Origin: Chloroflexota bacterium
Lineage (GTDB): Bacteria > Chloroflexota > Dormibacteria > Dormibacterales > Dormibacteraceae
Assembly: GCA_005880175.1 (NCBI GenBank)
Contig: VBJR01000163.1
Coordinates: forward strand, 13,388-25,278
Direction: 5' to 3'
Length of the DNA stretch: 11,891 bases
In this document: positions 1 through 11,891 of the stretch, piece by piece
Layout: every line of letters begins with the position of its first letter
How positions within the stretch are numbered: the first letter of the stretch is position 1
Program-made: the position numbers and the translations under genes
The notes under the pieces: model-generated
Databases searched by the model: none
What the model was told of the DNA's origin: nothing
Seen by the model: the letters and a program-made list of their open reading frames with translations, nothing else

Positions 1-193
1 GCTGCAGGTCCGCCGCGATCTCCCTGACGGTCTGCCGGCCGTCGCAGCGCGCCACGATCGCCCGGGCGGTCGGGTTCAGGGTGAGGACGCGCTCCGGGAG
101 CAGCACCAGGTCCACGCCGCGCCGGGCGTCGTGGCGCAGCAGCGCCCTCGCGGTCAGGCTGGGCACCGAGTCGGGCCCGATGCCGTTCAGCAA
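1..193 (-). CDS. pqqD: PqqD, PQQ biosynthesis peptide chaperone (partial, cut by window start)
   Basis: This is the N-terminal part of PqqD, the small RRE-fold protein that binds the PqqA precursor peptide and presents it to the radical-SAM enzyme PqqE. The visible reading frame carries the family pattern: VPSL near the start, then LLRHD, VLLPERVLTLNPTA, CDG and TVREIAADL. Only about 55-64 of the usual roughly 90 residues are inside the window. Two starts are possible. A TTG at 193-191 overlaps the end of pqqC and would suit translational coupling. A GTG at 166-164 begins directly at VPSL. Neither has a strong Shine-Dalgarno sequence; I chose the overlapping one with little conviction. pqqE would be expected next, outside the window. 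Confidence 0.85.
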   Translation of the reverse strand, partial: MLNGIGPDSVPSLTARALLRHDARRGVDLVLLPERVLTLNPTARAIVARCDGRQTVREIAADLQ

Positions 194-885
194 GACCCCG
201 TCCGCTCGACCGCGTCGAGGAGCGCCCACAGCACGCCGCACTTGAACTCGAGCGCGGCGACCGCCCGCTCCTGGGCCTCGCGGGTCGTCGAGGCTCGGGC
301 GACCAGCTCCAGCGCCTGCTGGGCCTCGCGGGGCGCGGCGTCCACGCGGTCGCGGAAGTAGCGCAGCCCGGTGGGGTCCAGCCACGGGTAGTGGCGCTCG
401 ATCGCGGCGACGCGGCTCGCCATCAGCGCGGGCGCGAACAGCTCGGTCAGCGACGACGCGACCGCCTCCGGCCATGGCCTCGCGCGACAGAAATCGACAT
501 AGCTGTCGACCGCGTCGCGGGCGGCGGGCAGGACGCCGGCACCCGCCTCGAGCCGGCGGCGGGGGATGCCCGCCGCCTCGCCGAGCTGCAGCCATGCCTC
601 GAGGCCGCCCTCGTCGCCCCGCGTGCCATCGTGGTAGAGGATCCGGCGCACCCACACCCGGCGTTCCTCGCGCCCGGGGAGCCGGGCCAGGATGAGCGCG
701 TCCTTGACCGGGATCTGCCGCTGGTAGTAGTAGCGGTTCTCGATCCAGGCCCGGAGCTGCTCCGGGCTGAGCAGGCCCTGGTGCATGGCCTGGTTGAACG
801 GGTGGCGGTCGTGGTAGCCGGCCTCGGCCACCGCCCGGAACTGCCCGAGAAGCTCGGCACGCGTCCACGGCTCGGGCGTGTCCAT
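187..885 (-). CDS. pqqC: PqqC, pyrroloquinoline-quinone synthase
   Basis: PqqC is the cofactorless oxidase that performs the last step of PQQ synthesis, ring closure and eight-electron oxidation of AHQQ, in the cytoplasm. The 232-residue protein has the usual length and hallmark blocks: NRYYYQRQIPVKDA (50-63), LYHDG (83-87), SSLTELFAP (144-152) and HYPW (165-168). Compared from memory with the Klebsiella enzyme, active-site residues are kept as H25, R51, Q55, K61, H85, E148, R158, Y176, R180 and K215 (offset +1). The position equivalent to Klebsiella H154 is Met155. Its ATG directly follows the pqqB stop (TAG/ATG), so translation is probably coupled. Family assignment is very firm; full activity is inferred. 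Confidence 0.97.
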   Translation of the reverse strand: MDTPEPWTRAELLGQFRAVAEAGYHDRHPFNQAMHQGLLSPEQLRAWIENRYYYQRQIPVKDALILARLPGREERRVWVRRILYHDGTRGDEGGLEAWLQLGEAAGIPRRRLEAGAGVLPAARDAVDSYVDFCRARPWPEAVASSLTELFAPALMASRVAAIERHYPWLDPTGLRYFRDRVDAAPREAQQALELVARASTTREAQERAVAALEFKCGVLWALLDAVERTGSC

Positions 886-1779
886 CTACAGCTCCAGGGC
901 CATGCCCTCGTCCGCGACCCCGAGGCCCAGGGCGGAGAGGGCTCGACGCTCGGGCGACGTCAGGTCGAGGACCGGGTTCGTGTTGTTCACGTGCACGTAC
1001 AGCCGATGGCTGGCCGGCAGGCGGGCGAGGCGCTCCGCGCTGCCGGCCGGCCCGGCGATGGGCAGGTGCCCCATGGCGCTGGCCGGCCTCGTGCCGGCGC
1101 CCGAGCGCCGCATCTCGTCATCGCGCCAGAACGTCCCGTCGAAGAGCACGCAGTCCGCGTCGCCGACCGCGGCCGCGACCTCCGGTGTCCAGCGCTCGAC
1201 GCCTGGCGCGTAGACGGCGACGCCGCCGGTCCGCCGGTCCTGGACCCGGAGGCCCACCGTCCAGTCGCCGCCCTCCTGGCCCTTGGCGTAGCGGGGCGGC
1301 CGGCCGCCGGTCCGGAACGCCTCCACGCGGAGCCCGTCGTCATCGAGGGAGAGCGGGACCCCCGGCACCAGGGTCCGCCATTCGAACGGGGCGTACCGGT
1401 CGAGGATGGGTCGGACCGGAAAGGCCGTCTTCAGCGCCTCGAGCACGGGCGTCGTGGCACAGACGGTCAGCCCGATTCCCTCGCGCAGCACGAGCAGGCC
1501 GAGCGTGTGATCGAGCTCGGCGTCGGTCAGGAGGACGCCGGCGATGGGCGTGGAGCGCGTGGCCGGCCCGGGGTGCAGCGTGGAGCACGACTCGACCTGC
1601 TGGCGGACGTCCGGTGTGGCGTTCATCAGGTACCAGGCGCGGCCGGTGGCACTGAACGCGACCGACGCGTGACTGAGTGGTCGCGCCCGCCCGTCACGGG
1701 CCAGGCGGCAGGTCGCGCACGCACAGTTCCACTGGGGGTAGCCGCCGCCGGCGGCTACCCCCAGCACGTGGACGATCAC
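886..1779 (-). CDS. pqqB: PqqB, metallo-beta-lactamase-fold PQQ biosynthesis protein
   Basis: PqqB belongs to the metallo-beta-lactamase superfamily and is thought to hydroxylate the cross-linked Glu-Tyr intermediate or help move PQQ. With the start used here the protein is 297 residues, close to the usual 300-308. It opens with VHVLGVAAGGGYPQWNC, as PqqB proteins do. The structural zinc cysteines C19, C21 and C24 are present, followed by TDAELDH (85-91), DGTFW (214-218), MGH (236-238) and the diagnostic HVNNTNP (263-269). The frame is open upstream to a GTG at 1854, but that would overlap pqqA completely and add an N-terminus foreign to the family. The GTG at 1779-1777 overlaps the pqqA stop as GTGA, which supports it as the coupled start. 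Confidence 0.96.
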   Translation of the reverse strand: MIVHVLGVAAGGGYPQWNCACATCRLARDGRARPLSHASVAFSATGRAWYLMNATPDVRQQVESCSTLHPGPATRSTPIAGVLLTDAELDHTLGLLVLREGIGLTVCATTPVLEALKTAFPVRPILDRYAPFEWRTLVPGVPLSLDDDGLRVEAFRTGGRPPRYAKGQEGGDWTVGLRVQDRRTGGVAVYAPGVERWTPEVAAAVGDADCVLFDGTFWRDDEMRRSGAGTRPASAMGHLPIAGPAGSAERLARLPASHRLYVHVNNTNPVLDLTSPERRALSALGLGVADEGMALEL

Positions 1780-1847
1780 CTGCGGTACGCGTATGCACTC
1801 GCCTCGGCGCTGACCTCCAGGACCTCGAAATCGGGCTCTTCCCACAT
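1776..1847 (-). CDS. pqqA: PqqA, PQQ precursor peptide (23 aa)
   Basis: This tiny gene encodes the ribosomally made peptide whose Glu and Tyr side chains are joined to become PQQ. The peptide begins MWEEPDFE and contains SAEASAY, so the obligatory E-x3-Y pair is E15 and Y19; it ends YRR. A length of 23 residues matches classical PqqA. A textbook Shine-Dalgarno GAGGAGG lies 9 nt before the ATG, and the gene sits 17 nt after the PQQ dehydrogenase stop. Its stop overlaps the pqqB start (GTGA). It is below the size limit of ordinary gene callers, and part of the pqqB frame extends over it. Motif, length, ribosome site and position agree, so the call is strong. Confidence 0.93.
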   Translation of the reverse strand: MWEEPDFEVLEVSAEASAYAYRR

Positions 1848-1864
1848 GCGTCACATCCTCCTCG

Positions 1865-4033
1865 TCACTGAACGACGATCTTGCCCGTGCTCTGGGGAAA
1901 CTCGGGGTCGTTGTAGAAGAACTCGCCGGGCGTGGTGAACGTGTGCTGGAACGATTGCCCCGGCATCAGCAGACCGGTGTCGAACTCGAACTCGAAGAAC
2001 GACACCGCGCCGTGAGCGTTGGCGTTGCCGGCGGGGTTGACGAAGGTCACCGTGGTCCCCACCGCGACGAGCAGGTTCTGCGGCGCCATCGCGTTCTGCG
2101 CCACCAGGTTCTCGGCGCCGCCCGGCTTCTGCGCGGTCGAGTCCCAGACGCGGCCCAGCGTGATGACGTTGCCCGCGGCCGCCCCCGTCACCGCCGGGCT
2201 GCGGATCTGGTTGCGCTTCGACGGCGGCGTGGGCGCCGGTGCCGGCGCCACCTGGCCTCCAAGCTTGAATGCCCACAGGTGGTCGCCCTTGGGGATATCG
2301 GGATACGGGAGCCCGTTGCCGCCGGCGAAGACGGCGATGTACTGCTCGCCGTCGATCTCGTAGCTGATCGGGCTGGTGTGCACACCAGCGCCCGTCTGGA
2401 AGCTCCACAGCTCGTCCCCGTTGGAGTCGTCCATCGCCACGAGAACGCCGTCGGGCCGGCCCTGGAACATCACCCGTCCGGCGGTGGTGAGGATCCCGTT
2501 GCCGTGAGCGAGCGACCAGTCGCCGTCCTTCGTCCAGACGGGCCTGTTGGTGCGGGGATCCACCGCGGCGATGCCGCCAGCGAAGAACTCTCCGAGCGGC
2601 CGGGAGGTGTTCACCCGGCCGCCGTCCGCGTTCGAGTACCCGGAGTTGATCAGCCCGTAGCCGACGTAGACGAGCCCCGTCTCCGGGCTGAACGAATCGT
2701 GCGACCAGTCGGCGCCGCCCCCCGCGCCGGGGAAGAGGATTGTGGCGCGGTCCCACATCGTCGTGAACATGGGCCCCGTCGGGTAGAACGGGACGGGACG
2801 CGTCGCCTTGTCGAATCGCGGCTCCTGGGGCACGAACGCCCCACCGCCCGGGAACGGCTGGGTGGGCCACGTCTTCTGCCGCGGGTCCTGCGGCACGGGC
2901 CGCTCCTCGATCCCATGCACGGGCTGACCGGTGGCGCGGTCGAGGATGAAGAACATCCCGACCTTGCTGCCGTAGACGACCACCTTGCGGATCTCACCGT
3001 CGATGCGCAGGTCGATCAGCACCGGCGCCATCACGTTGTCGTAGTCCCAGATGTCGTGGTGGACCGACTGGAAGTGCCAGCGGCGCTGACCAGTCTTGGC
3101 GTCGAGTGCCACGAGCGAGTTGGCGAACAGGTTGGTGCCGGCGCGAGTGGATCCGTCCGTTCTGGGGAACGGGTTGCCGAACGTCCGGTAGACCAGCCCG
3201 AGCTCGGGATCGATGGCGGGATGGATCCAGCAGACCGCCCCGCCGGTCTTCCAGGAGTCGCCGGCCCACGTGTCGTTGCCGAACTCGCCGGCCCCCGGCA
3301 CCGACCAGAACCGCCAGGCGATCTCACCGGTGCCGGCGTTCAGCGCGTAGGTCCGGCCACGCGCTCCGGCGGTGCTTCCCTGCATGCCCACGTAGATCAG
3401 GCCGTCCCAGTACACGATCGCGCCCGCGAGGGTGCCGACGTCACCGCCGCACTCGCCGCTCACCGGGTCGCAGCCGCTGCCCGCTCCGCCGTTCGTGAAG
3501 CCCTCGTCGAGCAGCTGCCGCTTCCACACGATCGCCCCGGTCCTCTGGTCGAGCGCGTAGACGATGTTCGCCCCGGAGGTGGAGAAGACCAGCCCCTTGC
3601 CGAGCGCCATGCCGCGCATGTTGGTCTGCGCTGAGCCGAGGTTCGTCCTCCACTTGATCGCCCCGGTCCGCCCGTCCACCGCGAAGACGTTCTGCTGGGT
3701 CGTCTGCACGTAGAGCACGCCGTCCTGAGCGACGACCGTGCTCTGCTGGGGAGCCGACTGATCGCCGCCCTCGAGGTGGACGTGCCAGGCGCCTCCCAGC
3801 CGGCCGGCGCTGCGCCGCGTGATCTGGTCCAGCGTGGAGTGGTTGTGGTTGGCGAGGTTCCCCCCGACCTGCGGGAAGTCCCGGCCCGCCACGCCGAAGC
3901 CGGCGGGCTGCGCCGGCGTGGTGTTCTCGTCGGCGGCGGCCGGGACGGTCAGCGTCCCCGCGGCGGCAGACGCGGCCGCAGTGGCCGCAGCCCCCACGAG
4001 GAACTGGCGCCGGTCGATGGGCTGTTTCAGCAT
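1865..4033 (-). CDS. Tat-exported PQQ-dependent dehydrogenase with C-terminal cupredoxin-like domain
   Basis: This 722-residue protein is a quinoprotein of the PQQ alcohol/sugar dehydrogenase superfamily. Residues 1-34 form a Tat signal (DRRQFLV, then an Ala-rich hydrophobic stretch ending AAA), so it acts outside the membrane. Residues about 50-592 form the eight-bladed propeller, with repeated blade motifs such as DGRTGAIKW, DQRTGAIVW and DAKTGQRRWHF. The motif HHDIWDYD (325-332) holds the likely catalytic Asp330 and a second acid, Asp332, that marks many lanthanide-using members. There is no CxxCH heme site and no adjacent Cys-Cys pair; C188 and C195 are near neighbours. After a Pro/Ala linker, residues about 610-722 resemble a cupredoxin, but apart from H674 the copper ligands appear lost. 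AGGAGGA lies 7 nt before the ATG. The substrate is unknown; a divergent dehydroshikimate dehydratase hints at quinate or shikimate. Confidence 0.92.
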   Translation of the reverse strand: MLKQPIDRRQFLVGAAATAAASAAAGTLTVPAAADENTTPAQPAGFGVAGRDFPQVGGNLANHNHSTLDQITRRSAGRLGGAWHVHLEGGDQSAPQQSTVVAQDGVLYVQTTQQNVFAVDGRTGAIKWRTNLGSAQTNMRGMALGKGLVFSTSGANIVYALDQRTGAIVWKRQLLDEGFTNGGAGSGCDPVSGECGGDVGTLAGAIVYWDGLIYVGMQGSTAGARGRTYALNAGTGEIAWRFWSVPGAGEFGNDTWAGDSWKTGGAVCWIHPAIDPELGLVYRTFGNPFPRTDGSTRAGTNLFANSLVALDAKTGQRRWHFQSVHHDIWDYDNVMAPVLIDLRIDGEIRKVVVYGSKVGMFFILDRATGQPVHGIEERPVPQDPRQKTWPTQPFPGGGAFVPQEPRFDKATRPVPFYPTGPMFTTMWDRATILFPGAGGGADWSHDSFSPETGLVYVGYGLINSGYSNADGGRVNTSRPLGEFFAGGIAAVDPRTNRPVWTKDGDWSLAHGNGILTTAGRVMFQGRPDGVLVAMDDSNGDELWSFQTGAGVHTSPISYEIDGEQYIAVFAGGNGLPYPDIPKGDHLWAFKLGGQVAPAPAPTPPSKRNQIRSPAVTGAAAGNVITLGRVWDSTAQKPGGAENLVAQNAMAPQNLLVAVGTTVTFVNPAGNANAHGAVSFFEFEFDTGLLMPGQSFQHTFTTPGEFFYNDPEFPQSTGKIVVQ

Positions 4034-4064
4034 GGCTCGCTCCTCCTGTGCGTACCTGCCGCCG

Positions 4065-5045
4065 TCAGCGGCAGAACGGCTTCATGCCCATCGCGGACTG
4101 GATCCCGCCGGCGATCAGCTTCTGGAAGCTCGATGCGCCCGGGAAGGCTGCGTCGTCGGCGAAGTCCCCTGCGTCGTGGCCGAGGGTGGTCACCCAGGAC
4201 CGGCCGCCGTCGTAGTACTGGCACCAGGCCACGGGATGGAAGTCGCCGAGGCCGGGGTCGCCGAGATTGCCCCTCGCTCCGGATGGCAGCGTGCTCTCGT
4301 CCACGGCGGCGAGGAACCGGACGTCCGTGGGGAAGGGGATCAGGTTGTACCACTCGTCGGTGAACGTCCAGCGCGCCGGCAGGCCGGCGGTGGAGGCGTC
4401 CCTGTGGTCTATGGTCGCCACGGTCCCGCTCTGGAGCGGCCCGTGGTCGTAGAAGTTGGCGTTGCCGAGCAGCCCCTCGTACCAGGGCCAGTTGTACTCC
4501 GCGCCGAACGCGTTGTGGATGCCGACGAACCCGCCGCCCGCCCGGACGTACTGGCGGAGCGACGTCTGCCCGGCATCGTCGAGCGTGGCCCGGTTGGAGC
4601 TGAAGAAGATCACGGCGTTGTACTTGAGCAGCTGCGCCGGGGTGGCGATCTGGGCCAGGTCCTCAGTCCAGTCAACGGTGAAGCCGTTCGCCTGGCCGAG
4701 CTCGATCATCTGGTTCTGGACCACGTTGGCGGCGGACAGCGGCGGGTCGAGACCGGGTCCGAGAGGCGGTCCGAGGTCAGCGTGGCGCGGCCCGGCGGTC
4801 CGGGTCCACAGCAGGGCGTGGAAGCCGTTGGCCGGGTTGAAGTTGCCCCAGTCGTGGTAGCACTTCGCGTCCGGCCCGCGGCAGACGCCGTAGTCGAAGT
4901 TGCCCAGGTTCTGCCGCTTCGCGCTGTCGGAGCTGGTCCGGCCGGCCCCGAGGTCCGCGAGCGCGATCCCGGTGGTCATCACCGCCGCCACCGCGAGCGC
5001 GGTGACGAGCGCCGTGGTGGCGATGGTGGCGGAACGACGCTTCAT
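4065..5045 (-). CDS. Secreted ThuA-domain protein
   Basis: This 326-residue protein has a Sec-type signal peptide (MKRRS, hydrophobic core about 8-28, probable cleavage after ALA30) and one ThuA-like domain, a class I glutamine-amidotransferase-like flavodoxin fold. Family marks are GGGFVGIH (170-177), WPWYEGLLG (186-194), H201, DEWY (230-233), HPVAW (270-274) and GR-VTTLGH (281-290). Four cysteines (55, 62, 275, 325) could form disulfides outside the cell. ThuA proteins take part in trehalose and keto-sugar metabolism, but their chemistry is poorly settled. ThuA domains are often joined to secreted sugar dehydrogenases, which agrees with the PQQ dehydrogenase gene 31 nt downstream. A purine-rich GGAGGAGAGAGGG precedes the ATG. 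It is probably the first gene of the operon. The domain call is firm; the role is inferred. Confidence 0.85.
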   Translation of the reverse strand: MKRRSATIATTALVTALAVAAVMTTGIALADLGAGRTSSDSAKRQNLGNFDYGVCRGPDAKCYHDWGNFNPANGFHALLWTRTAGPRHADLGPPLGPGLDPPLSAANVVQNQMIELGQANGFTVDWTEDLAQIATPAQLLKYNAVIFFSSNRATLDDAGQTSLRQYVRAGGGFVGIHNAFGAEYNWPWYEGLLGNANFYDHGPLQSGTVATIDHRDASTAGLPARWTFTDEWYNLIPFPTDVRFLAAVDESTLPSGARGNLGDPGLGDFHPVAWCQYYDGGRSWVTTLGHDAGDFADDAAFPGASSFQKLIAGGIQSAMGMKPFCR

Positions 5046-5070
5046 CGGGACATCCCTCTCTCCTCCGTAG

Positions 5071-5124
5071 GTCCGCTAGACGGACCGTGTGATCCGTGCT
5101 ACGGTTAGCGTCACTCTAGCGGAC
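5071..5124. repeat. 10-bp perfect inverted repeat, candidate operator
   Basis: GTCCGCTAGA at 5071-5080 is matched exactly by its reverse complement TCTAGCGGAC at 5115-5124, with a 34-bp spacer. The left arm also forms a second small palindrome with the next bases, GTCCG (5071-5075) and CGGAC (5081-5085). Inside the spacer, ACGGA (5080-5084) and TCCGT (5093-5097) form a further pair. Such nested symmetry 26-80 bp before the first operon gene is what an operator region looks like; the binding protein is unknown. Confidence 0.5.
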
Positions 5125-5169
5125 GCCAGGCGATGGCGCAAGGAGTTAGCGAGGTGGTCGACATCCGAC

Positions 5170-5182
5170 TCTGGATTCCAGA
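5170..5182. promoter_or_regulatory. 13-bp palindrome upstream of the dehydratase gene
   Basis: TCTGGATTCCAGA is a perfect 6-1-6 palindrome, 45 bp before the ATG at 5228. The TGGA/TCCA arms resemble the half-sites of some IclR-family repressors, a family that often controls aromatic and quinate catabolism. That link is only a resemblance. Confidence 0.4.
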
Positions 5183-5227
5183 CAGTGGAGCCGGGGGACC
5201 GCGTGGTGGGGCAAGCGGCGAACGCCG

Positions 5228-7147
5228 ATGCGAAGGTCGATCGCGACGGTCTCGCTGAGCGGCACGCTGCCGGAGAAGCTGCGCGCCGCGGCGGCTGCCG
5301 GCTTCGACGGCGTCGAGATGTTCGAGAGCGACCTGGTGAGCTGTCCACTGTCACCGGAGGAGGTGCGCGCCCTGACCCGGGAGCTCGGGCTGGGCATCGA
5401 CCTCTACCAGCCGTTCCGCGACTTCGAGGCCGTACCCGCCGAGGTGTTCGACCGCAACCTCCGCCGGGCCCGCCACAAGCTCGCCCTGATGGATCGCCTG
5501 GGCGCCAGCACGATGCTGGTCTGCTCCAACTGCTCGCCGCAGGCCATCGACGACGACGGCCTGGCGGCCGCGCAGCTGCGCGAGCTGGCGCGCCTCGCCG
5601 CCGAGCGCGGCATGCGCATCGCCTACGAGGCGCTCGCCTGGGGGCGTCACGTCGACGACTCCCTCCATGCCTGGCGGATCGTCGCAGCGGCGGACCACCC
5701 GGACCTTGGCCTGTGCCTCGACAGCTTCCACATCCTGTCCCGCGGCGTGGAATCCGCGCGTATTCGGGCCATCCCCGGGGAGAAGGTCTTCTTCCTCCAG
5801 CTCGCGGACGCTCCGCGCCTGCCCATGGACGTGCTCCAGTGGAGCCGGCACCATCGCTGCTTCCCCGGGCAGGGCGACCTCGATGTGACCACCCTCGTGG
5901 AGCACGTCCTCGCGGCCGGGTACCGTGGCCCGCTGTCGCTGGAGGTCTTCAACGACCTGTTCCGGCAGACCGACCCCGGGCGGTCCGCGGTCGATGCCAT
6001 GCGTTCGCTGCTCGCCCTGGAGGAATCGCTGCGGCGGAGGCCGGGTCACCGCCGTGACGTCGAGCTGTGCGATCCGCCGACCCCCGCCGAGCTGGCCGGC
6101 TACGCGTTCGTCGAGATCGCCGTCGACGAGGCGTCCTCGACGCCGGCGGCGGCGCTCCTGCGGTCGCTCGGCCTCCACCGCACGGCACGCCACCGCACCA
6201 AACCCGTGCGGCTCTGGCGGCAGGGCGGGGTGCGCGTCCTGCTGAACGCGGGCGAGCAGCGCCCGGCGGCCCGGCCGAGCGGCGAGGCGGCGGTGACCGC
6301 GCTCGGCATCGAGAGCGCCGACGTGGCTCGGTCCGTCCGGCGCGCGCGGGTGCTGCTGGCTCCCGTGCGTCCGCGTATCCACGGGCCGTGCGAGGCGGAG
6401 CTGACAGAGATCGAGGCCCCGGACGGGACCGCGGTGTTCTTCTGTCACACCGGGGGCGACGACCCCGGGAACTGGGTCGACGACTTCCTTCCCGTCCGGG
6501 CGCGCCGTGAGGCGCCGCCGGCGGGATTCACCCGGATCGACCACGTCGGGCTGTCGCAGCCGTTCGGGTACTTCGACGAGGCCGCACTGTTCTACCGGGC
6601 CGTGCTGGGCCTTGGGGCGCTGGACGGGCAGGAGCTGGCGGGACCTGATGGCCTGCTCCGCAGCAGGGCCCTTGGAGGGTCCTCGGGCGAGCTGCGGATC
6701 GCGCTCGAGGTGCCGTTGATGGGTGGCGCCGTGGCGCACTCACCGGCGCTCCACCACGTCGCGTTCGCCTGCGAGGACGTCTTCGCCGCGGCGCGGACCG
6801 CGCGGGTGCTGGGGGCGCCGGTCCTTGCCATCCCGGGCAACTACTACGATGACCTCGCTGCCCGCTTCGATCTCGGCAGCGATCTGCTCGCCACCATGCG
6901 GGAGCACAGTGTCCTGTACGACCGATGCGAGGTGGGGGGTGAGCTCTTCCAGTTCTACACCGAGACGGTGGGCCGGAGCCTGTTCTTCGAGGTCGTCCAG
7001 CGCGTCGGCGGCTATGGAGCGCATGGCATCGACGCCTCCAGCGGGCGACCGGCGGTAGATCTGGTTCGGCTGCCGACCTGGTCTCGCGCCCACATGTGCG
7101 CACCGGCGGCGAGGTGGACGGGTTCTGGGATACCTATCGAGAGGTGA
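5228..7147 (+). CDS. quiC: 3-dehydroshikimate dehydratase, QuiC1-type two-domain enzyme (altered C-terminal tail)
   Basis: The protein converts 3-dehydroshikimate to protocatechuate, feeding quinate and shikimate into aromatic ring cleavage. Residues 1-270 form a sugar-phosphate-isomerase-like TIM barrel starting RRSIATVSLSGTLPEKL, the family signature. The divalent-metal ligands E134, D165, Q191 and E239 and the catalytic H168 sit at the same numbers as I recall for Pseudomonas QuiC1. Residues about 290-590 are the HPPD-like half, with the metal triad H439, H510 and E588. The family resemblance fades after GGYGAHG (about 594-600); the last roughly 40 residues are read across a VapC gene remnant in another frame, so the native end seems replaced. 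The ATG was chosen because it begins the conserved N-terminus; its ribosome site is weak. It is divergent from the PQQ operon. Confidence 0.9.
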   Translation: MRRSIATVSLSGTLPEKLRAAAAAGFDGVEMFESDLVSCPLSPEEVRALTRELGLGIDLYQPFRDFEAVPAEVFDRNLRRARHKLALMDRLGASTMLVCSNCSPQAIDDDGLAAAQLRELARLAAERGMRIAYEALAWGRHVDDSLHAWRIVAAADHPDLGLCLDSFHILSRGVESARIRAIPGEKVFFLQLADAPRLPMDVLQWSRHHRCFPGQGDLDVTTLVEHVLAAGYRGPLSLEVFNDLFRQTDPGRSAVDAMRSLLALEESLRRRPGHRRDVELCDPPTPAELAGYAFVEIAVDEASSTPAAALLRSLGLHRTARHRTKPVRLWRQGGVRVLLNAGEQRPAARPSGEAAVTALGIESADVARSVRRARVLLAPVRPRIHGPCEAELTEIEAPDGTAVFFCHTGGDDPGNWVDDFLPVRARREAPPAGFTRIDHVGLSQPFGYFDEAALFYRAVLGLGALDGQELAGPDGLLRSRALGGSSGELRIALEVPLMGGAVAHSPALHHVAFACEDVFAAARTARVLGAPVLAIPGNYYDDLAARFDLGSDLLATMREHSVLYDRCEVGGELFQFYTETVGRSLFFEVVQRVGGYGAHGIDASSGRPAVDLVRLPTWSRAHMCAPAARWTGSGIPIER

Positions 7148-7292: not shown

Positions 7293-7639
7293 ACGGATAC
7301 AGCCGGGCCTGGTGGGACTGACCATCTTCGACGCCGTCGTGACCTGGCTCACGTGGCGCGTATACCAGAGACAACGGAGCCGCACGCATCGCAGGGCCCC
7401 CGGGCGCGTCTCCGGCCGGCCGGATAGCTCATCGTCCCCATCGCGGACATCAGCGGTATCAAGCCCACGGACACGCCCCATCCGCTACCTGCAGACCGCA
7501 GGCATCACTTGCCGTCAACCGGGTGACGTACGCCAGTCCGACCATGCTCCGTTGGTAGCCGAGCTCGTCGTCCGTGACCGGCCGCCGGCGGGGATTGGGG
7601 GCCGACGTCCCGCACTGACCTGGACGCGGAAGCTCTCGC
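7293..7639. other. Non-coding stretch between VapC remnant and IS remnant
   Basis: About 350 bp lie between the VapC stop and the recognisable transposase. Both strands hold open frames but none has a ribosome site, family motif or natural amino-acid composition. One minus-strand frame (end of 7459-7665) reads VTDDELGYQRSMVGLAYVT, which looks protein-like but was not recognised. It is best read as decayed DNA left by insertion and deletion. Confidence 0.4.
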
Positions 7640-8215
7640 CGAATGGGAAGGTCGGTCAAGGACACCAGGGCTGCCGTGGTCGGAATGGTGGATCACGCCA
7701 GAGTCGGCCTTCCGGTTCCAGATCGCCATCTCCAGCGCGCTCAGGACCAGCTGATCGGTGGCCCGGCTCCCCATCGCCCAGCCGATCACCCGGCGCGAGG
7801 CCACGTCCAGGACGACGGCCAGGAAGAAGAAACCGGCCAGGGTGGGCACGTACGTGATGTCGGCCGCCCAGATGGACCTGCGCGATCCGCTCGCTGATGG
7901 CGGCGTCCGCCAGTTCACGAGCTGATGGCGGCCGGCGGCGCCACGCGTAGTAACCGCCGGGGGAGACGCCCAGCACCTGGTGCGCAGGTGCGCTGTGGCG
8001 ATCGGGAAGTTGGCCTTCTCCCGCTCCACGAACTCGAACACCTCTACCGGGTCCGCTCGGTCCCCTGAGCGAAGAAGGCGGCGGCATTTACCAGGATCGC
8101 CCGCTCGGTCTCCACAGCTGCTTCACCTTCCGGCGCAGCCGCTGCAGCTCCTCGCGCTCCTGCGTGGTCAGGCCGTCATCGTGCAGACCGTCGTCGCCGT
8201 CCGACAACTGTCAAT
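7640..8215 (-). pseudogene. IS3-family insertion sequence remnant (OrfA tail and OrfB with deletions and frameshifts)
   Basis: Reading the minus strand from about 8195, the end of OrfA appears as LTTQEREELQRLRRKVKQL and, after a frameshift, ERAILVNAAAFFAQGTERTR (ending near 8055). OrfB follows as FEFVEREKANFPIAT, then in another frame VLGVSPGGYYAWRRRPPSA and ISERIAQVHLG. The part that should hold the HTH-to-core linker is deleted. The DDE core continues as WAADITYVPTLAGFFFLAVV, ASRRVIGWAMGSRATDQLVL and IHHSDHGS. The first two catalytic acids (WAAD and HSD) are visible, while the third (Glu) and the C-terminus are gone. At least three frame changes and one internal deletion make it dead. Clear terminal inverted repeats were not found. 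Confidence 0.88.
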
Positions 8216-8885: not shown

Positions 8886-9860
8886 ATGGCTGATGCGCGT
8901 TCGAAGTTCGATGAGTACGTGGCCTGGTACTCCTGGGCGAAGACCAACCTGGTACGCGATGCCACGGTCTGCCATGCAGCTGCGGCAGCTGCAACGCACA
9001 CGCTCGCCTGGGGCGGCGGACGCGACACCGCGGCGGTGGCCGCCCGAGACGCGGCCATGGACGAGGCGGCCATCGGCTGGACCAGGACCAGCTACGGTTC
9101 CGACCACAGCTACGTCGAGTGGTTCATCTGGGCCAAGGACAACCTGCGCCTCCCCGATGCGCGCTGCCACGAGGCCGCGCGGGCTGCGCTCCAATCGATC
9201 GCGGCTGGCGGCTCTCAGCGGAGCGCCAGCGAGGCCGCCACGCGGCTCCTGCTACCTCCGGCCCAGTCCGCCGACAGTTCATGGCAGCCGTGGCTCGCGG
9301 AAACCGTGGGGCTGGCTCTCCCCGCAACACGGCGGCAACCGGTCCCTCCGAGGCTCGCGTCACGGCCGGTGGGTGGGAACAGCGTCGGTGGAGGGAGGCT
9401 GCTGCTGGCGCTCGGGCTGTGGCCCGTGCTGGCGGTGGCCAGCCACGATACTGGCGCTGCAGGTCCTGGCGAGCGCCTGGGTCGCCGGCCACGACGCCGA
9501 CCTCACGGCCATCATCATGGCTGAGGTCTACGTAGCCCTCCTGGCCGCTCTCGCACTGGCCTTCGGCGGCCCGGCCGGCTTGCGCGACCGCCTGGCCTTC
9601 CGGTTCACATCGGCAGGCCACCTCGCGCTGGTCCTGCCGACCTGGCTGGGCGCGCTGGTAGCCGGCCTGCTGGCTACCGCCATGTTGAGCCCGTGGCTGG
9701 GTCCGCCCGAGAGCAATACCGCCCCGCTGCTCAGCACGTCCTTCGACCCCCTCTTCGTGGGCATCATCGTGCCCACCGTCTGCCTGCTCGGGCCGGCCTG
9801 CGAGGAGATGCTGTTCCGGGGTGCGCTCTATGGCTGGCTGCGTCGCCGCGTTCCGCTGAC
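8886..9860 (+). pseudogene. CPBP-family intramembrane protease with N-terminal tandem-repeat domain, frameshifted and truncated
   Basis: GGGAGGT lies 8 nt before the ATG, a strong start. The first frame encodes a soluble region with two similar units (residues 11-57 and 76-122), a linker, and the start of a membrane segment (GRLLLALGLWPVLAV). Near 9436-9450 the coding frame moves by one: the ATG frame runs into a His/Arg-rich tail and stops at 9524. The next frame continues with TILALQVLASAW, AEVYVALLAALALAFGG, HLALVLPTWLGALVAGLL and CEEMLFRGALYGWL. The last contains EExxxR, motif 1 of CPBP (Rce1-like) metalloproteases. Homology stops at about 9860, before the later His motifs needed for metal binding, so the enzyme is dead. 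A sequencing error could explain the frameshift but not the lost 3' end. Actinobacterial relatives are often immunity or bacteriocin-processing proteins. Confidence 0.72.
8916..9251 (+). repeat. Two tandem 47-residue protein repeats (period 65 residues)
   Basis: Unit 1 (8916-9056) and unit 2 (9111-9251) share the pattern YV-W--WAK-NL, eight residues, then CH-AA-AA, followed by a GG turn and an Ala-rich end. The aligned Tyr, Trp, Lys, Asn, Cys and His positions match without gaps over the first 20 residues. A CH pair in each unit (C29/H30 and C94/H95 of the protein) could bind metal. I do not recognise the domain. Confidence 0.7.
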
Positions 9861-10006
9861 GAGGATGACGGCGCCCCCATCGCATGTCACGGCGATGTCC
9901 CTCTCGGAGCGGGGCGCACCGCGTCCGCCTCCGCTCCGACCTGCGCCAGCCATGCCTGCATGCGACCAGGATCGCGGAATATCCGCGTGCGGTCCATGCA
10001 CACCGC

Positions 10007-11023
10007 ATGCACAATCAAGGTCTGAGCAACGAGACGCTGTTCGGGCGGCTCCTCCGCGCCTTCCGTGAGGCCGCGAGCCTCTCCCAGGAGGAGCTTGCCG
10101 AGCGCAGCCAGCTGAGCTGGAGGGCCATCACCGCCCTCGAGCGAGGCGAGCGGCGGAGGCCGCGTCCGCGGACCGTCCGGATGCTGGCGAACGCGCTCAA
10201 CCTTCCCGACCAGGACCGCGACCGCCTGTTCGCGAGCGTGCCCGGCGCCGAAGCCGGGCAGCACGGCGGGTGGTCGACGCTAGCGCCGGTTGTGGCGCAG
10301 CTGCCGGCGGCCGTGGTCGACTTCACCTGCCGGGGGGCCGAGGTCGACCAGCTCGCGTCCCGGCTGCGGCTGGCGGCCGCCGGCCCGTCCGCGACGATTG
10401 TCGCCGCGATCTCGGGCAAGCCCGGAATCGGAAAGTCCACCCTTGCGGTCCACGTCGCCCACCTGGTGCGCCCCGATTTCCCGGACGGACAGCTGTACGC
10501 CGACCTGGGCGGCCCAGACGCCCTGGTCGAATCGCCGGCGGACGTCCTCGCGGGCTTCCTGCGGGCGCTCGGCGTGCCGCCCTCGGCGATTCCCGTAGCC
10601 GTGCCCGAGCGCGCGGCCTTATACCGGTCGCTGCTTGCCGGCCGGCGCTGGCTGGTCTTGATCGACGACGCCCGCGGCGAGGAGCAGGTGCGCGACCTGG
10701 TGCCGGGGGCGGCGGGGTGCGCGGTGCTTGTCACGTCCCGCCGGCGGCTTACCGCTCTGGCTGGCGCGGATCAGTGCCATCTCGGGGACCTGGACGTCGA
10801 CTGCGGCGCCCGACTCCTCGGCAGGATCGCCGGCGACGGCCGCATTGGGTCGGAGCGCTGGGCGGCCGAGGCCATCGTGACGCGGTGCGGCGGGCTGCCG
10901 CTCGCAATCCGCGTCGCGGGCGCCGTCCTCAGGCGGAAGCCGCATTGGCCGGTGGCGCGCCTGGCCGGCCGGGAAGCCGCCGGAACACCCGAGCCAGCGC
11001 CGGGGTCAGCTCCCGATAGCTGA
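10007..11023 (+). pseudogene. XRE-HTH / NB-ARC transcriptional regulator, broken by a micro-inversion
   Basis: This is the N-terminal part of an AfsR-like regulator that binds DNA and uses an STAND ATPase to sense a signal. Residues about 8-62 form an XRE helix-turn-helix (LSQEELAERSQLSWRAITAL, ERGERR). The NB-ARC domain has Walker A GKPGIGKST (137-145), Walker B WLVLID (215-220), the TSRRR sensor (243-247) and CGGLPLA (304-310). The protein should continue into winged-helix and TPR regions for several hundred residues. Instead it stops 338 residues after the ATG, because the following piece of the same gene lies reversed at 10973-11069. The ATG at 10007 has no clear ribosome site, and a CTG at 10022 after CAAGG is an alternative. 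The truncated protein might still bind DNA, but normal signalling is unlikely. Confidence 0.78.
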
Positions 11024-11069: not shown

Positions 11070-11290
11070 AGGCGCTCTCCACGGAAGCCCAGGTGGCGCT
11101 CACCCTCCGGCTCGTCGGCGGCCTGTCAACCCGGGAGGTGGCGAGATGCTTCCTCGTATCGGAGCCGACGCTGGCGGTCCGTCTCGTCCGCGCCAAGCGC
11201 AAGATCAGAGCTGCGCGAATTCCCTACCGGGTGCCGGAGGGTCGTGAGCTGCCCGACCGCCTGCGCTCCGTGCTGACCGTCCTCTACCTC
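11069..11290 (+). pseudogene. Internal fragment of an ECF42-type (DUF6596) sigma factor
   Basis: The frame reads [19 protein letters not shown], then [38 protein letters not shown] and [15 protein letters not shown]. This is the sigma-4 helix-turn-helix and the following linker typical of ECF42 sigma factors. Residues before it (sigma-2, promoter -10 binding) and after it (the NEGY block and the long C-terminal extension) are missing. The left end meets the inverted NB-ARC fragment directly, and the right end runs into the SDR gene, ending at a TGA at 11324-11326. A GTG at 11093 opens the longest frame, but no Shine-Dalgarno is evident. It is a relic, not a working gene. Confidence 0.8.
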
Positions 11291-11320
11291 GTCTTGGTCA
11301 TCTCCTGTCCGTGGCGGTGC

Positions 11321-11891
11321 TCATGACGTCCCCTCGATCCCGGCGAGGCGAGCGCGCACCCGCGCGCTCATCGAAGCCGTCATGCCGGTGAAGAAGCGGC
11401 GTGGAAACACCGAGGCGAGAACGCGATTCGTCCTGCCCGCGATGTGGGTGGGGCGATTGGCGCCGACCGCCTCCAGGCCCTCCGCCACCACCCGCTCGAC
11501 CGGCATCATGCGCAGCGGGCGCATCATTCGATTCATGGTCTCGACGTCCATGCCGTAGGCCTGAACCATCTCGGTTGCGGTGGCCCCCGGAAGCAGCACG
11601 GTCACGTTCACGCCCAGCCTGGCGAGCTCAACGTGGAGACCCTCGCCGAGGACGAGCGTGAACGCCTTGCTGGCGCCGTACTCGGCTGACCCGGGCATGC
11701 CCTGACGACCGCCGACGCTCGACACGAGCAGCAGCCCACCCCGCCGGCGATCGCTCAGCCGCCGGCCGAAGTGGTGGGCGAGGTCGAGATGGGCGACGGC
11801 GTTCAGCCTGACCATGCGGTGAAGGTGCTCCCGATCGTGGTCGAGCAGCTCCGCGATCTGGATAGCGCCAGCGTTGGAGACGACCAGGCCG
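11321..11891 (-). CDS. Short-chain dehydrogenase/reductase (SDR), partial at window end
   Basis: The C-terminal 189 residues of a classical SDR oxidoreductase are visible; the N-terminus with the TGxxxGIG nucleotide site is beyond the window. SNAGA close to the edge is the NAG motif. The catalytic Ser is in LLLVSSVGG and the YxxxK pair is in EYGASK, with the usual spacing of about 12 residues. PGATATEM follows, as in the PG motif after the active site. The C-terminal half has many Arg and Met residues and lacks a recognised substrate signature. The ATG at 11815 is internal, since the frame and homology continue upstream to the edge. Substrate unknown. Confidence 0.88.

What the first reader, a model, noticed from the sequence alone, without database searches (positions are those of the whole stretch)
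1..7147. Candidate exported quinate/shikimate oxidation module: ThuA + PQQ dehydrogenase + pqqABCD divergent from a QuiC-type dehydratase
Seen: one minus-strand operon codes a secreted ThuA protein, an exported PQQ dehydrogenase and the PQQ pathway, and it faces a 3-dehydroshikimate dehydratase across 182 bp. Known: in quinate/shikimate use, a membrane PQQ dehydrogenase (QuiA) supplies the substrate that QuiC converts to protocatechuate. Inferred: this soluble Tat-exported enzyme could be an independent version of QuiA, with its own cofactor genes and an unexplained ThuA partner. I know of no described system with this set.
Basis: partly seen in the sequence, partly recalled or inferred. Interest (0 to 1): 0.72.

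Follow-up and report, generated by a model that had tools for sequence, protein, structure and literature searches.

The report
Exported quinate-type PQQ oxidation cluster
Soil actinobacteria carry a conserved gene cluster in which an exported, PQQ-dependent enzyme of its own lineage, paired with a secreted ThuA protein, probably starts the breakdown of plant quinate or shikimate, a job so far credited to a different, membrane-bound enzyme.

Summary
The genes are as described: pqqD (cut by the window edge), pqqC, pqqB, pqqA, a PQQ dehydrogenase (DH) with a Tat-type leader, and ThuA on the minus strand, facing a QuiC-type dehydratase across exactly 182 bp. The layout is conserved. ThuA is near the DH (within 10 kb) in 38 of 38 close actinobacterial loci; QuiC, a type-II 3-dehydroquinate dehydratase (AroQ) or shikimate dehydrogenase in 18 of 30 full-flank ones. 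Betaproteobacterial relatives have ThuA in 17 of 18, AroQ in 13 of 18. Nineteen other windows from five such genomes have none of these. In 296 genomes of the class, the 6 with the DH all have QuiC (35 of 296 do). The DH branches apart from QuiA/glucose and methanol/ethanol dehydrogenases. A quinate/shikimate role is well supported by context; the substrate is untested.
The DH ends in a plastocyanin-like domain without copper ligands. In actinobacteria it also travels with a TPP enzyme, aldehyde dehydrogenase, CoA-transferase III, citryl-CoA lyase and ABC importer, partly under a shared palindromic operator. This leaves open a bolder reading, a non-aromatic ring-opening route for quinate.

The parts
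2..193 (-). pqqD, 3' part missing (cut by window edge)
   Evidence: PF05402 30.1 bits against cut-off 23.4; TTG start read by eye
187..885 (-). pqqC, pyrroloquinoline-quinone synthase
   Evidence: TIGR02111 276.7 bits, over cut-off 240
886..1779 (-). pqqB (GTG start overlapping the pqqA stop, by eye)
   Evidence: TIGR02108 379.1 bits, over cut-off 245; sequence
1776..1847 (-). pqqA precursor peptide MWEEPDFEVLEVSAEASAYAYRR
   Evidence: read from the sequence; Glu-x3-Tyr motif recalled, no call
1865..4033 (-). PQQ dehydrogenase (DH) with Tat-type leader, 722 aa
   Evidence: PF01011 314 bits; TIGR03075 301 bits, under cut-off; PDB and fold matches to PQQ alcohol dehydrogenases
1868..2200 (-). 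C-terminal plastocyanin/cupredoxin-fold domain of the DH (about residues 612-722), copper ligands replaced
4065..5045 (-). ThuA-family protein, 326 aa, Sec-like leader
   Evidence: PF06283 165.7 bits; conserved near DH
5069..5087 (.). Palindromic operator-like site AGGTCCGCTAGACGGACCG
   Evidence: exact GTCCGN5CGGAC at 5071-5085, 0.11 expected in the window; same motif before DH/ThuA and IclR/Aldedh genes of relatives
5228..7147 (+). QuiC-type 3-dehydroshikimate dehydratase, two-domain, 639 aa
   Evidence: NF042435 568 bits; PDB 5hmq 512.6 bits; 10 of 10 published active-site residues present

Best explanation
This is part of a conserved catabolic cluster for quinate/shikimate-type cyclitol acids. 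The DH, exported folded by Tat and loaded with PQQ made by the adjacent pqq genes, oxidises a ring hydroxyl outside the cytoplasm (quinate to 3-dehydroquinate and/or shikimate to 3-dehydroshikimate), and secreted ThuA acts on the keto product or assists the DH. The keto acid is imported (ABC, MFS or TRAP genes in relatives); AroQ and QuiC then take it to protocatechuate. Shown here: gene identity, conservation and co-occurrence, separate DH lineage, canonical QuiC active site in the window, a shared operator-like site in part of the group. Inferred: substrate, export, role of ThuA, direction of transport, electron acceptor.
For: Near the DH (flanks up to 10 kb): ThuA 38/38 in clade A and 17/18 in C; QuiC 17/38 in A and 6/8 in B; AroQ 5/38, 2/8 and 13/18 in A, B, C; shikimate dehydrogenase 11/38 and 5/8 in A, B. 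Clades D and E have none (0/6, 0/10). Nineteen arbitrarily placed windows from five DH genomes have none. QuiC lies near the DH in 19 of 33 genomes against 0.08 expected, AroQ in 8 of 11 full-flank clade C loci against 0.12 expected (kinship not corrected). Class sample of 296: DH 6, QuiC 35, both 6; without the centre genome 5, 34 and 5 of 295, P 1.5e-5. QuiC active site 10/10 in the window, in 12 of 17 clade A and 5 of 6 clade B copies. NF009201 shikimate dehydrogenase in L015 over its cut-off (413 against 235). In L056 AroQ lies between a DctP gene and a 187-aa ORF next to DctM. No TIGR03074 protein at E <= 1e-80 in 5 of 5 actinobacterial DH genomes.
Against: QuiC is not near in 21 of 38 clade A loci; 12 of 30 full-flank ones lack QuiC, AroQ and shikimate dehydrogenase. 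In five further loci from the class sample, ThuA is near in 4, QuiC in 2. L035, sister to clade A at 63% identity, has full flanks and neither ThuA nor QuiC. TPP enzyme (35/38), aldehyde dehydrogenase (34/38) and ABC solute-binding protein (35/38) are commoner neighbours than QuiC and have no place in the classical quinate route. An NAD shikimate dehydrogenase near the DH could already do the oxidation. The operator-like site precedes QuiC in only 1 of 17 clade A loci; a TetR gene is near the DH in 12/38. The shikimate-transporter-like MFS is under its cut-off (312.9 against 538), found in 2/38 and 4/8, and once in 19 control windows. The DH is under the cut-offs of the three PQQ-dehydrogenase families it matched best. 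Five of 17 clade A QuiC copies have altered pocket residues. One Comamonas DH genome also has ten TIGR03074 proteins.
Confidence: 0.6

Rival explanations
1. Ring-opening variant: the DH and ThuA turn quinate into a cyclic hydroxy-ketone or diketone that a TPP enzyme opens; aldehyde dehydrogenase makes a citrate-like acid, CoA-transferase III activates it and the citryl-CoA lyase cleaves it. QuiC is a parallel aromatising branch or, as altered paralogs, an isomerase of this branch.
For: TPP enzyme 35/38, Aldedh 34/38, CoA-transferase III and citryl-CoA lyase 22/38 each in clade A; 8, 8, 8 and 3 of 8 in clade B; 0/19 in control windows. L121: CoA-transferase, lyase, AroQ (tblastn match only, 97 bits), a flavoprotein, QuiC, shikimate dehydrogenase, ThuA, DH in one block. 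The TPP enzyme is in 7 of 296 genomes of the class: 5 of the 6 DH genomes and two others that carry a more distant DH (37%) in the same cluster. Lyase of L016 over its curated cut-off (401 against 261), nearest PDB 6hxp citryl-CoA lyase, 110 bits. CoA-transferase nearest to YfdE (261 bits), with formyl-CoA transferase and succinate-hydroxymethylglutarate CoA-transferase next (245, 244 bits). Same operator-like site at DH/ThuA and at IclR/Aldedh promoters. Quinate C1 has the citrate skeleton (established chemistry, recalled).
Against: No step tested. The TPP enzyme's nearest solved relatives are BbmA (279 bits) and acetolactate synthases (263); cyclohexane-1,2-dione hydrolase scores 167. The set is absent from clade C apart from one CoA-transferase and one ABC hit. 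The lyase family is in 13 of 296 genomes, so not confined to this cluster. Operator sites at IclR/Aldedh come from few families. The window itself shows none of these genes.
Confidence: 0.2
2. The DH oxidises another polyol, sugar or hydroxy acid, and the QuiC-family neighbour acts on that product (a sugar-phosphate-isomerase-like use of the TIM barrel).
For: Pocket residues differ in eight clustered QuiC copies: L002, L010, L027, L034, L037, L051, L125, L127. ThuA is recalled from trehalose and keto-sugar contexts. DH under the cut-offs of the named families it matched.
Against: The window QuiC and 21 of 31 QuiC rows (one gene counted twice) keep all ten active-site residues; AroQ and shikimate dehydrogenase co-occur as well.
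Confidence: 0.15
3. Chance neighbourhood: a simple alcohol or sugar dehydrogenase next to QuiC.
For: The window's right flank is a patchwork with an IS3 remnant.
Against: Recurrence across genera and classes far above expectation.
Confidence: 0.03

Closest known systems
QuiA, membrane PQQ quinate/shikimate dehydrogenase (TIGR03074 family, with glucose dehydrogenase)
   Same: PQQ propeller, H(H/N)DxWD motif, lack of the usual metal-ligand Glu, functional neighbourhood of DHQ/DHS enzymes
   Different: Tat-type leader, separate branch in the tree, 210.6 bits against cut-off 832.65, extra cupredoxin-fold tail, ThuA partner
Type I/II PQQ alcohol and methanol dehydrogenases (TIGR03075)
   Different: under the family cut-off (301 against 480), metal-ligand Glu replaced by Thr221, no cytochrome tail
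qsu/qui pathway genes (Corynebacterium glutamicum qsuABCD, recalled; Pseudomonas QuiC1)
   Same: QuiC/QsuB-type dehydratase, AroQ, shikimate dehydrogenase and transporter genes in relatives
   Different: adds an exported PQQ oxidation step, ThuA, and a TPP / citryl-CoA-lyase set
Plastocyanin / type-1 copper cupredoxins
   Same: fold of the DH's C-terminal domain
   Different: only the first His is kept; Cys, His and Met ligand positions are Asp709, Phe712 and Ser715 (positions by alignment with L067)

Membership tests
TIGR03074 membrane PQQ glucose/quinate/shikimate dehydrogenase (QuiA) | score over curated cut-off 832.65 | tested here: not met
   210.6 bits, best stretch residues 224-457
TIGR03074 membrane PQQ glucose/quinate/shikimate dehydrogenase (QuiA) | groups with family members in a tree | tested here: not met
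   separate from ten TIGR03074 rows, all from one Comamonas genome and none a proven QuiA; SH-aLRT 100, quick method, no bootstrap
TIGR03074 membrane PQQ glucose/quinate/shikimate dehydrogenase (QuiA) | oxidises quinate/shikimate | not testable with these tools
   needs enzyme assay
TIGR03075 methanol/ethanol PQQ dehydrogenase | score over curated cut-off 480.05 | tested here: not met
   301.1 bits
TIGR03075 methanol/ethanol PQQ dehydrogenase | metal-ligand Glu of the SGxE motif (motif recalled) | tested here: not met
   Thr221 in the window DH; Glu in the six plasmid-borne rows aligned, L091, L092, L094-L097
PQQ-dependent dehydrogenase (superfamily) | PQQ propeller fold and catalytic Asp (position recalled) | tested here: met
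   PF01011 314 bits; HHDIWDYD with Asp330 invariant in A1; fold matches
QuiC/QsuB 3-dehydroshikimate dehydratase | ten active-site residues of QuiC1/QsuB | tested here: met
   10 of 10, list from PMC7442255 (passage)
QuiC/QsuB 3-dehydroshikimate dehydratase | NF042435 score over cut-off 1200 | tested here: not met
   568.4 bits; C. glutamicum, home of the characterised QsuB, also rings only below this cut-off, so the cut-off is narrower than the activity
PQQ biosynthesis operon | pqqA, B, C, D and E | tested here: inconclusive
   A by eye, B and C over cut-offs, D in part; E, if there, lies beyond the window edge; a PqqE relative is near 26 of 38 clade A DHs
Type-1 copper cupredoxin | plastocyanin-like fold | tested here: met
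Type-1 copper cupredoxin | His, Cys, His, Met ligands (recalled) | tested here: not met
   only His674 kept; intact C-x2-H-x2-M seen in Chloroflexi relatives L067 and L079
ThuA (PF06283) | family score over cut-off | tested here: met
   165.7 bits against 33.4

The most novel reading that the evidence does not exclude
Actinobacteria have a second, non-aromatic route for quinate. An exported PQQ dehydrogenase plus ThuA makes a cyclic hydroxy-ketone; a TPP enzyme opens the ring between the keto and hydroxyl carbons; an aldehyde dehydrogenase, CoA-transferase III and citryl-CoA lyase then harvest the citrate-like carbon skeleton as acetyl-CoA and an oxo acid. Altered QuiC paralogs serve this branch, and the whole is under one IclR-type operator. 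The DH's copper-less cupredoxin tail is a relic or a docking module of a former blue-copper relay.
Probability: 0.2. Interest if true: 0.85.

Novelty: new variant of a known kind. Interest (0 to 1): 0.62.

Why it matters
If true, an exported quinoprotein of its own lineage does in Gram-positive soil bacteria (and in Variovorax-type Betaproteobacteria) what membrane QuiA does elsewhere, which changes how PQQ use and plant cyclitol acid breakdown in soil are annotated. It would give ThuA proteins a testable pathway role, supply a case of a quinoprotein whose fused blue-copper domain has lost its copper ligands, and point to a possible unknown ring-opening pathway with named genes.

Tried and rejected
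Whole genome of the window: none held. Viral contigs: 25 stretches matched a pattern, none encodes a relative. Plasmid records of the three closest hits opened: no annotated gene in the stretch; used as DNA only. Rfam (gathering threshold) and tRNA scans of the window: nothing. Sigma-70 promoter and terminator scan of 4900-5400: nothing. VIA/Foldseek on the whole DH tests the propeller only, so the tail was modelled apart. ThuA function from literature: two searches gave no paper, two gave listings without a ThuA-PQQ title (15 of 33 papers and 12 of 704 papers shown); ThuA has one solved relative found, 4jqs, a hypothetical protein. Other literature searches: 5 papers; 1; 1; 2; 0; 5; no title or abstract start listed describes this system. 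The library holds openly licensed papers only. Paper seen beyond a listing: PMC7442255, passages only. Rejected: chance neighbourhood; membership in TIGR03074 or TIGR03075; a working copper relay in the DH tail.

Counting caveats. Clades A-E were defined by me from identity and the tree. Clade D is a mixed remainder (L035, L038, L039, L041, L064, L067), not a clean outgroup: L035 is sister to A in the tree. Bit thresholds are mine. Loci with short flanks lower the counts; only 3 loci each of D and E have full flanks. The 33 genomes are 33 of the 46 clade A and B loci. The control windows were placed by hand at round positions, not drawn at random, and are actinobacterial only. The class sample includes its centre G001, chosen because it has the DH; figures without it are. 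The class name (Actinomycetes) is inferred from G001 being the Actinomadura genome of L004. The operator matrix was trained on 17 sites picked by an exact core, so DH/ThuA counts are partly by construction even with each locus left out. The first operator count for Aldedh (17/34) was wrong because of a coordinate bug; one search replaces it (8/25). P values ignore relatedness; the 8 clade A IclR/Aldedh sites are all in Actinoplanes-type genera (titles), and one of three clade B IclR sites (L065) lies inside a coding match.
Full report
What is in the window. The minus strand carries pqqD (cut by the edge), pqqC, pqqB, pqqA, a 722-aa PQQ dehydrogenase (DH) and a 326-aa ThuA protein. The plus strand carries a 639-aa QuiC-type protein that starts 182 bp away. 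PqqB and PqqC exceed their curated cut-offs; PqqA was recognised by eye. The DH has a twin-arginine leader (PF10518 20.6 bits, cut-off 22.7). ThuA has a Sec-like leader and QuiC none (both by eye). The window is 71% G+C. The DH's nearest tree rows are Actinomycetota.

QuiC. It matches the two-domain protein 5hmq over residues 1-602 (512.6 bits). It has all ten active-site residues that PMC7442255 lists for QuiC1/QsuB (passage; check). It scores under the NF042435 cut-off, but so does the match in C. glutamicum, where QsuB was characterised.

The DH. It is below the cut-offs of TIGR03075, TIGR03074 and TIGR04528. In a 62-row quick tree its 37-row clade (SH-aLRT 100, no bootstrap) stands apart from ten TIGR03074 proteins of one Comamonas genome and from seven plasmid-borne PQQ dehydrogenases, five of them annotated as methanol/ethanol family. 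No proven QuiA, XoxF or glucose dehydrogenase sequence was in the tree. The active site keeps Asp330 (catalytic by analogy, recalled) in HHDIWDYD. It has Thr221 where the six plasmid-borne rows aligned have Glu, recalled as a metal ligand. The four TIGR03074 rows aligned also lack that Glu and share H(H/N)DxWD. This likeness is suggestive only.

Conservation. Within the fetched flanks, up to 10 kb, in the order A, B, C, D, E: ThuA 38/38, 2/8, 17/18, 0/6, 0/10; QuiC 17/38, 6/8, 0/18, 0/6, 0/10; AroQ 5/38, 2/8, 13/18, 0/6, 0/10; shikimate dehydrogenase 11/38, 5/8, 0/18, 0/6, 0/10; PqqB 24/38, 0/8, 4/18, 0/6, 0/10. Two clade C loci carry a 36% identical QuiC-like stretch below the threshold. With both flanks complete, 18/30 in A, 6/7 in B and 8/11 in C have at least one of QuiC, AroQ or shikimate dehydrogenase; D and E have 0/3 each.

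QuiC copies near the DH are not all alike. Twelve of 17 in clade A and 5 of 6 in clade B keep all ten active-site residues; L002, L010, L027, L034, L037 and L051 do not.

Controls. Nineteen 20-kb windows placed by hand in five of the DH genomes have none of the genes scored except one MFS transporter hit. QuiC occurs about once per genome (32 of 33), so chance would put it near the DH in 0.08 of 33 genomes; 19 were seen. AroQ near the DH in clade C: 8 of 11 full-flank loci against 0.12 expected from 31 copies in those 11 genomes. In an even draw of 296 genomes of the class of L004's genome, 6 have the DH and 35 have QuiC; all 6 are among the 35 (Fisher P 1.8e-6). Without the centre genome, which was chosen for its DH, it is 5 of 5 against 34 of 295 (P 1.5e-5). 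Kinship is not corrected.

Independent loci. The five other DH loci of that draw (L120-L124) have ThuA in 4, QuiC in 2, shikimate dehydrogenase in 2, AroQ in 1 and the TPP enzyme in 3 of the 20-kb stretches (a fourth TPP enzyme, of L121's genome, lies just outside). L122 has only a distant DH (38%) and ThuA.

A second gene set. In clades A and B the DH also travels with a TPP enzyme (35/38, 8/8), aldehyde dehydrogenase (34/38, 8/8), CoA-transferase III (22/38, 8/8), citryl-CoA lyase (22/38, 3/8), an ABC solute-binding protein (35/38, 6/8) and an IclR regulator (25/38, 8/8). Clade C lacks it, apart from one CoA-transferase and one ABC hit, and has another IclR type and TRAP genes. In L121 the order is CoA-transferase, lyase, AroQ (97-bit tblastn match), flavoprotein, QuiC, shikimate dehydrogenase, ThuA (opposite strand), DH. 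The TPP enzyme is in 7 of 296 genomes, 5 of them among the 6 DH genomes; the other two have a 37% DH, an altered QuiC, the TPP enzyme and the lyase together. The lyase family itself is in 13 of 296, so it is not confined to this cluster.

Operator. A palindrome near TGGTCCGYNTAGYGGACCA lies at 5069-5087 in the window. A matrix from 17 DH/ThuA promoter sites, scored with each locus left out, finds it upstream of DH in 18/37 and of ThuA in 22/38 clade A loci. At IclR/Aldedh promoters, not used in training, it is found in 8/25 (A), and in B at IclR in 3/8 and Aldedh in 2/8. It is at 0/17 DH starts of clade C and 1/17 QuiC starts of clade A. Background is 2 hits in 380 kb. So the DH/ThuA operon and the TPP/aldehyde-dehydrogenase operon share a site in part of the group. 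QuiC usually does not, though in the window it shares the intergenic region. No binding was tested.

Reading. The simplest account is an exported PQQ oxidation step for quinate or shikimate, with cytoplasmic AroQ and QuiC downstream. The clade C data matter most for the substrate: there the DH keeps ThuA and AroQ although no full-length QuiC is near, which points to 3-dehydroquinate. The second gene set is not explained by that account. Quinate's C1 carries the citrate pattern (tertiary hydroxyl, carboxyl, two CH2 arms; recalled chemistry), so ring opening followed by citryl-CoA-type cleavage is chemically sensible; this is inference. ThuA may act on the keto product, for example as an exported dehydratase; nothing here tests it.

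Literature. Searches for ThuA with PQQ dehydrogenase, quinate with PQQ, PQQ with cupredoxin and fusion, PQQ biosynthesis in Streptomyces and citryl-CoA lyase with quinate listed no paper whose title or abstract start describes this system. The papers listed were not opened, and the library covers openly licensed papers only.

Noticed in passing
window 7505-8087 (-): IS3-family transposase remnant (integrase core, PF00665, at 7508-8041) just downstream of QuiC; an overlapping ORF in another frame has no Pfam match.
   Followed up: no
window 9884-11023 (+): AfsR-like helix-turn-helix/NB-ARC regulator, followed by a sigma-70 region-4 fragment (11093-11326).
   Followed up: no
window 8896-10065 (+): Weak Rce1/CAAX-protease-like stretch (20.1 bits, under its cut-off 22.4) overlapping the regulator gene in another frame; L121 has an Rce1-like gene right after the DH.
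   Followed up: no
L067:9856-14717, L079: Chloroflexi PQQ dehydrogenases (two in tandem in L067) fused to a C-terminal cupredoxin with an intact copper loop.
   Followed up: partly
L125:14608-17349, L127:9304-12054, L037:5301, L051:6232: QuiC paralogs with altered pocket residues, in clusters with citryl-CoA lyase or TPP enzyme.
   Followed up: partly
L053 genome (G007, Comamonas sp. BIGb0124): Ten TIGR03074 membrane PQQ dehydrogenases in one 5-Mb genome, besides the DH of this report.
   Followed up: no
L056:16243-17679, L056:13947-16148: Variovorax neighbours of unknown function: an ELWxxDGT-repeat protein and a 733-aa protein without Pfam match, beside the TRAP-transporter and AroQ genes.
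   Followed up: no
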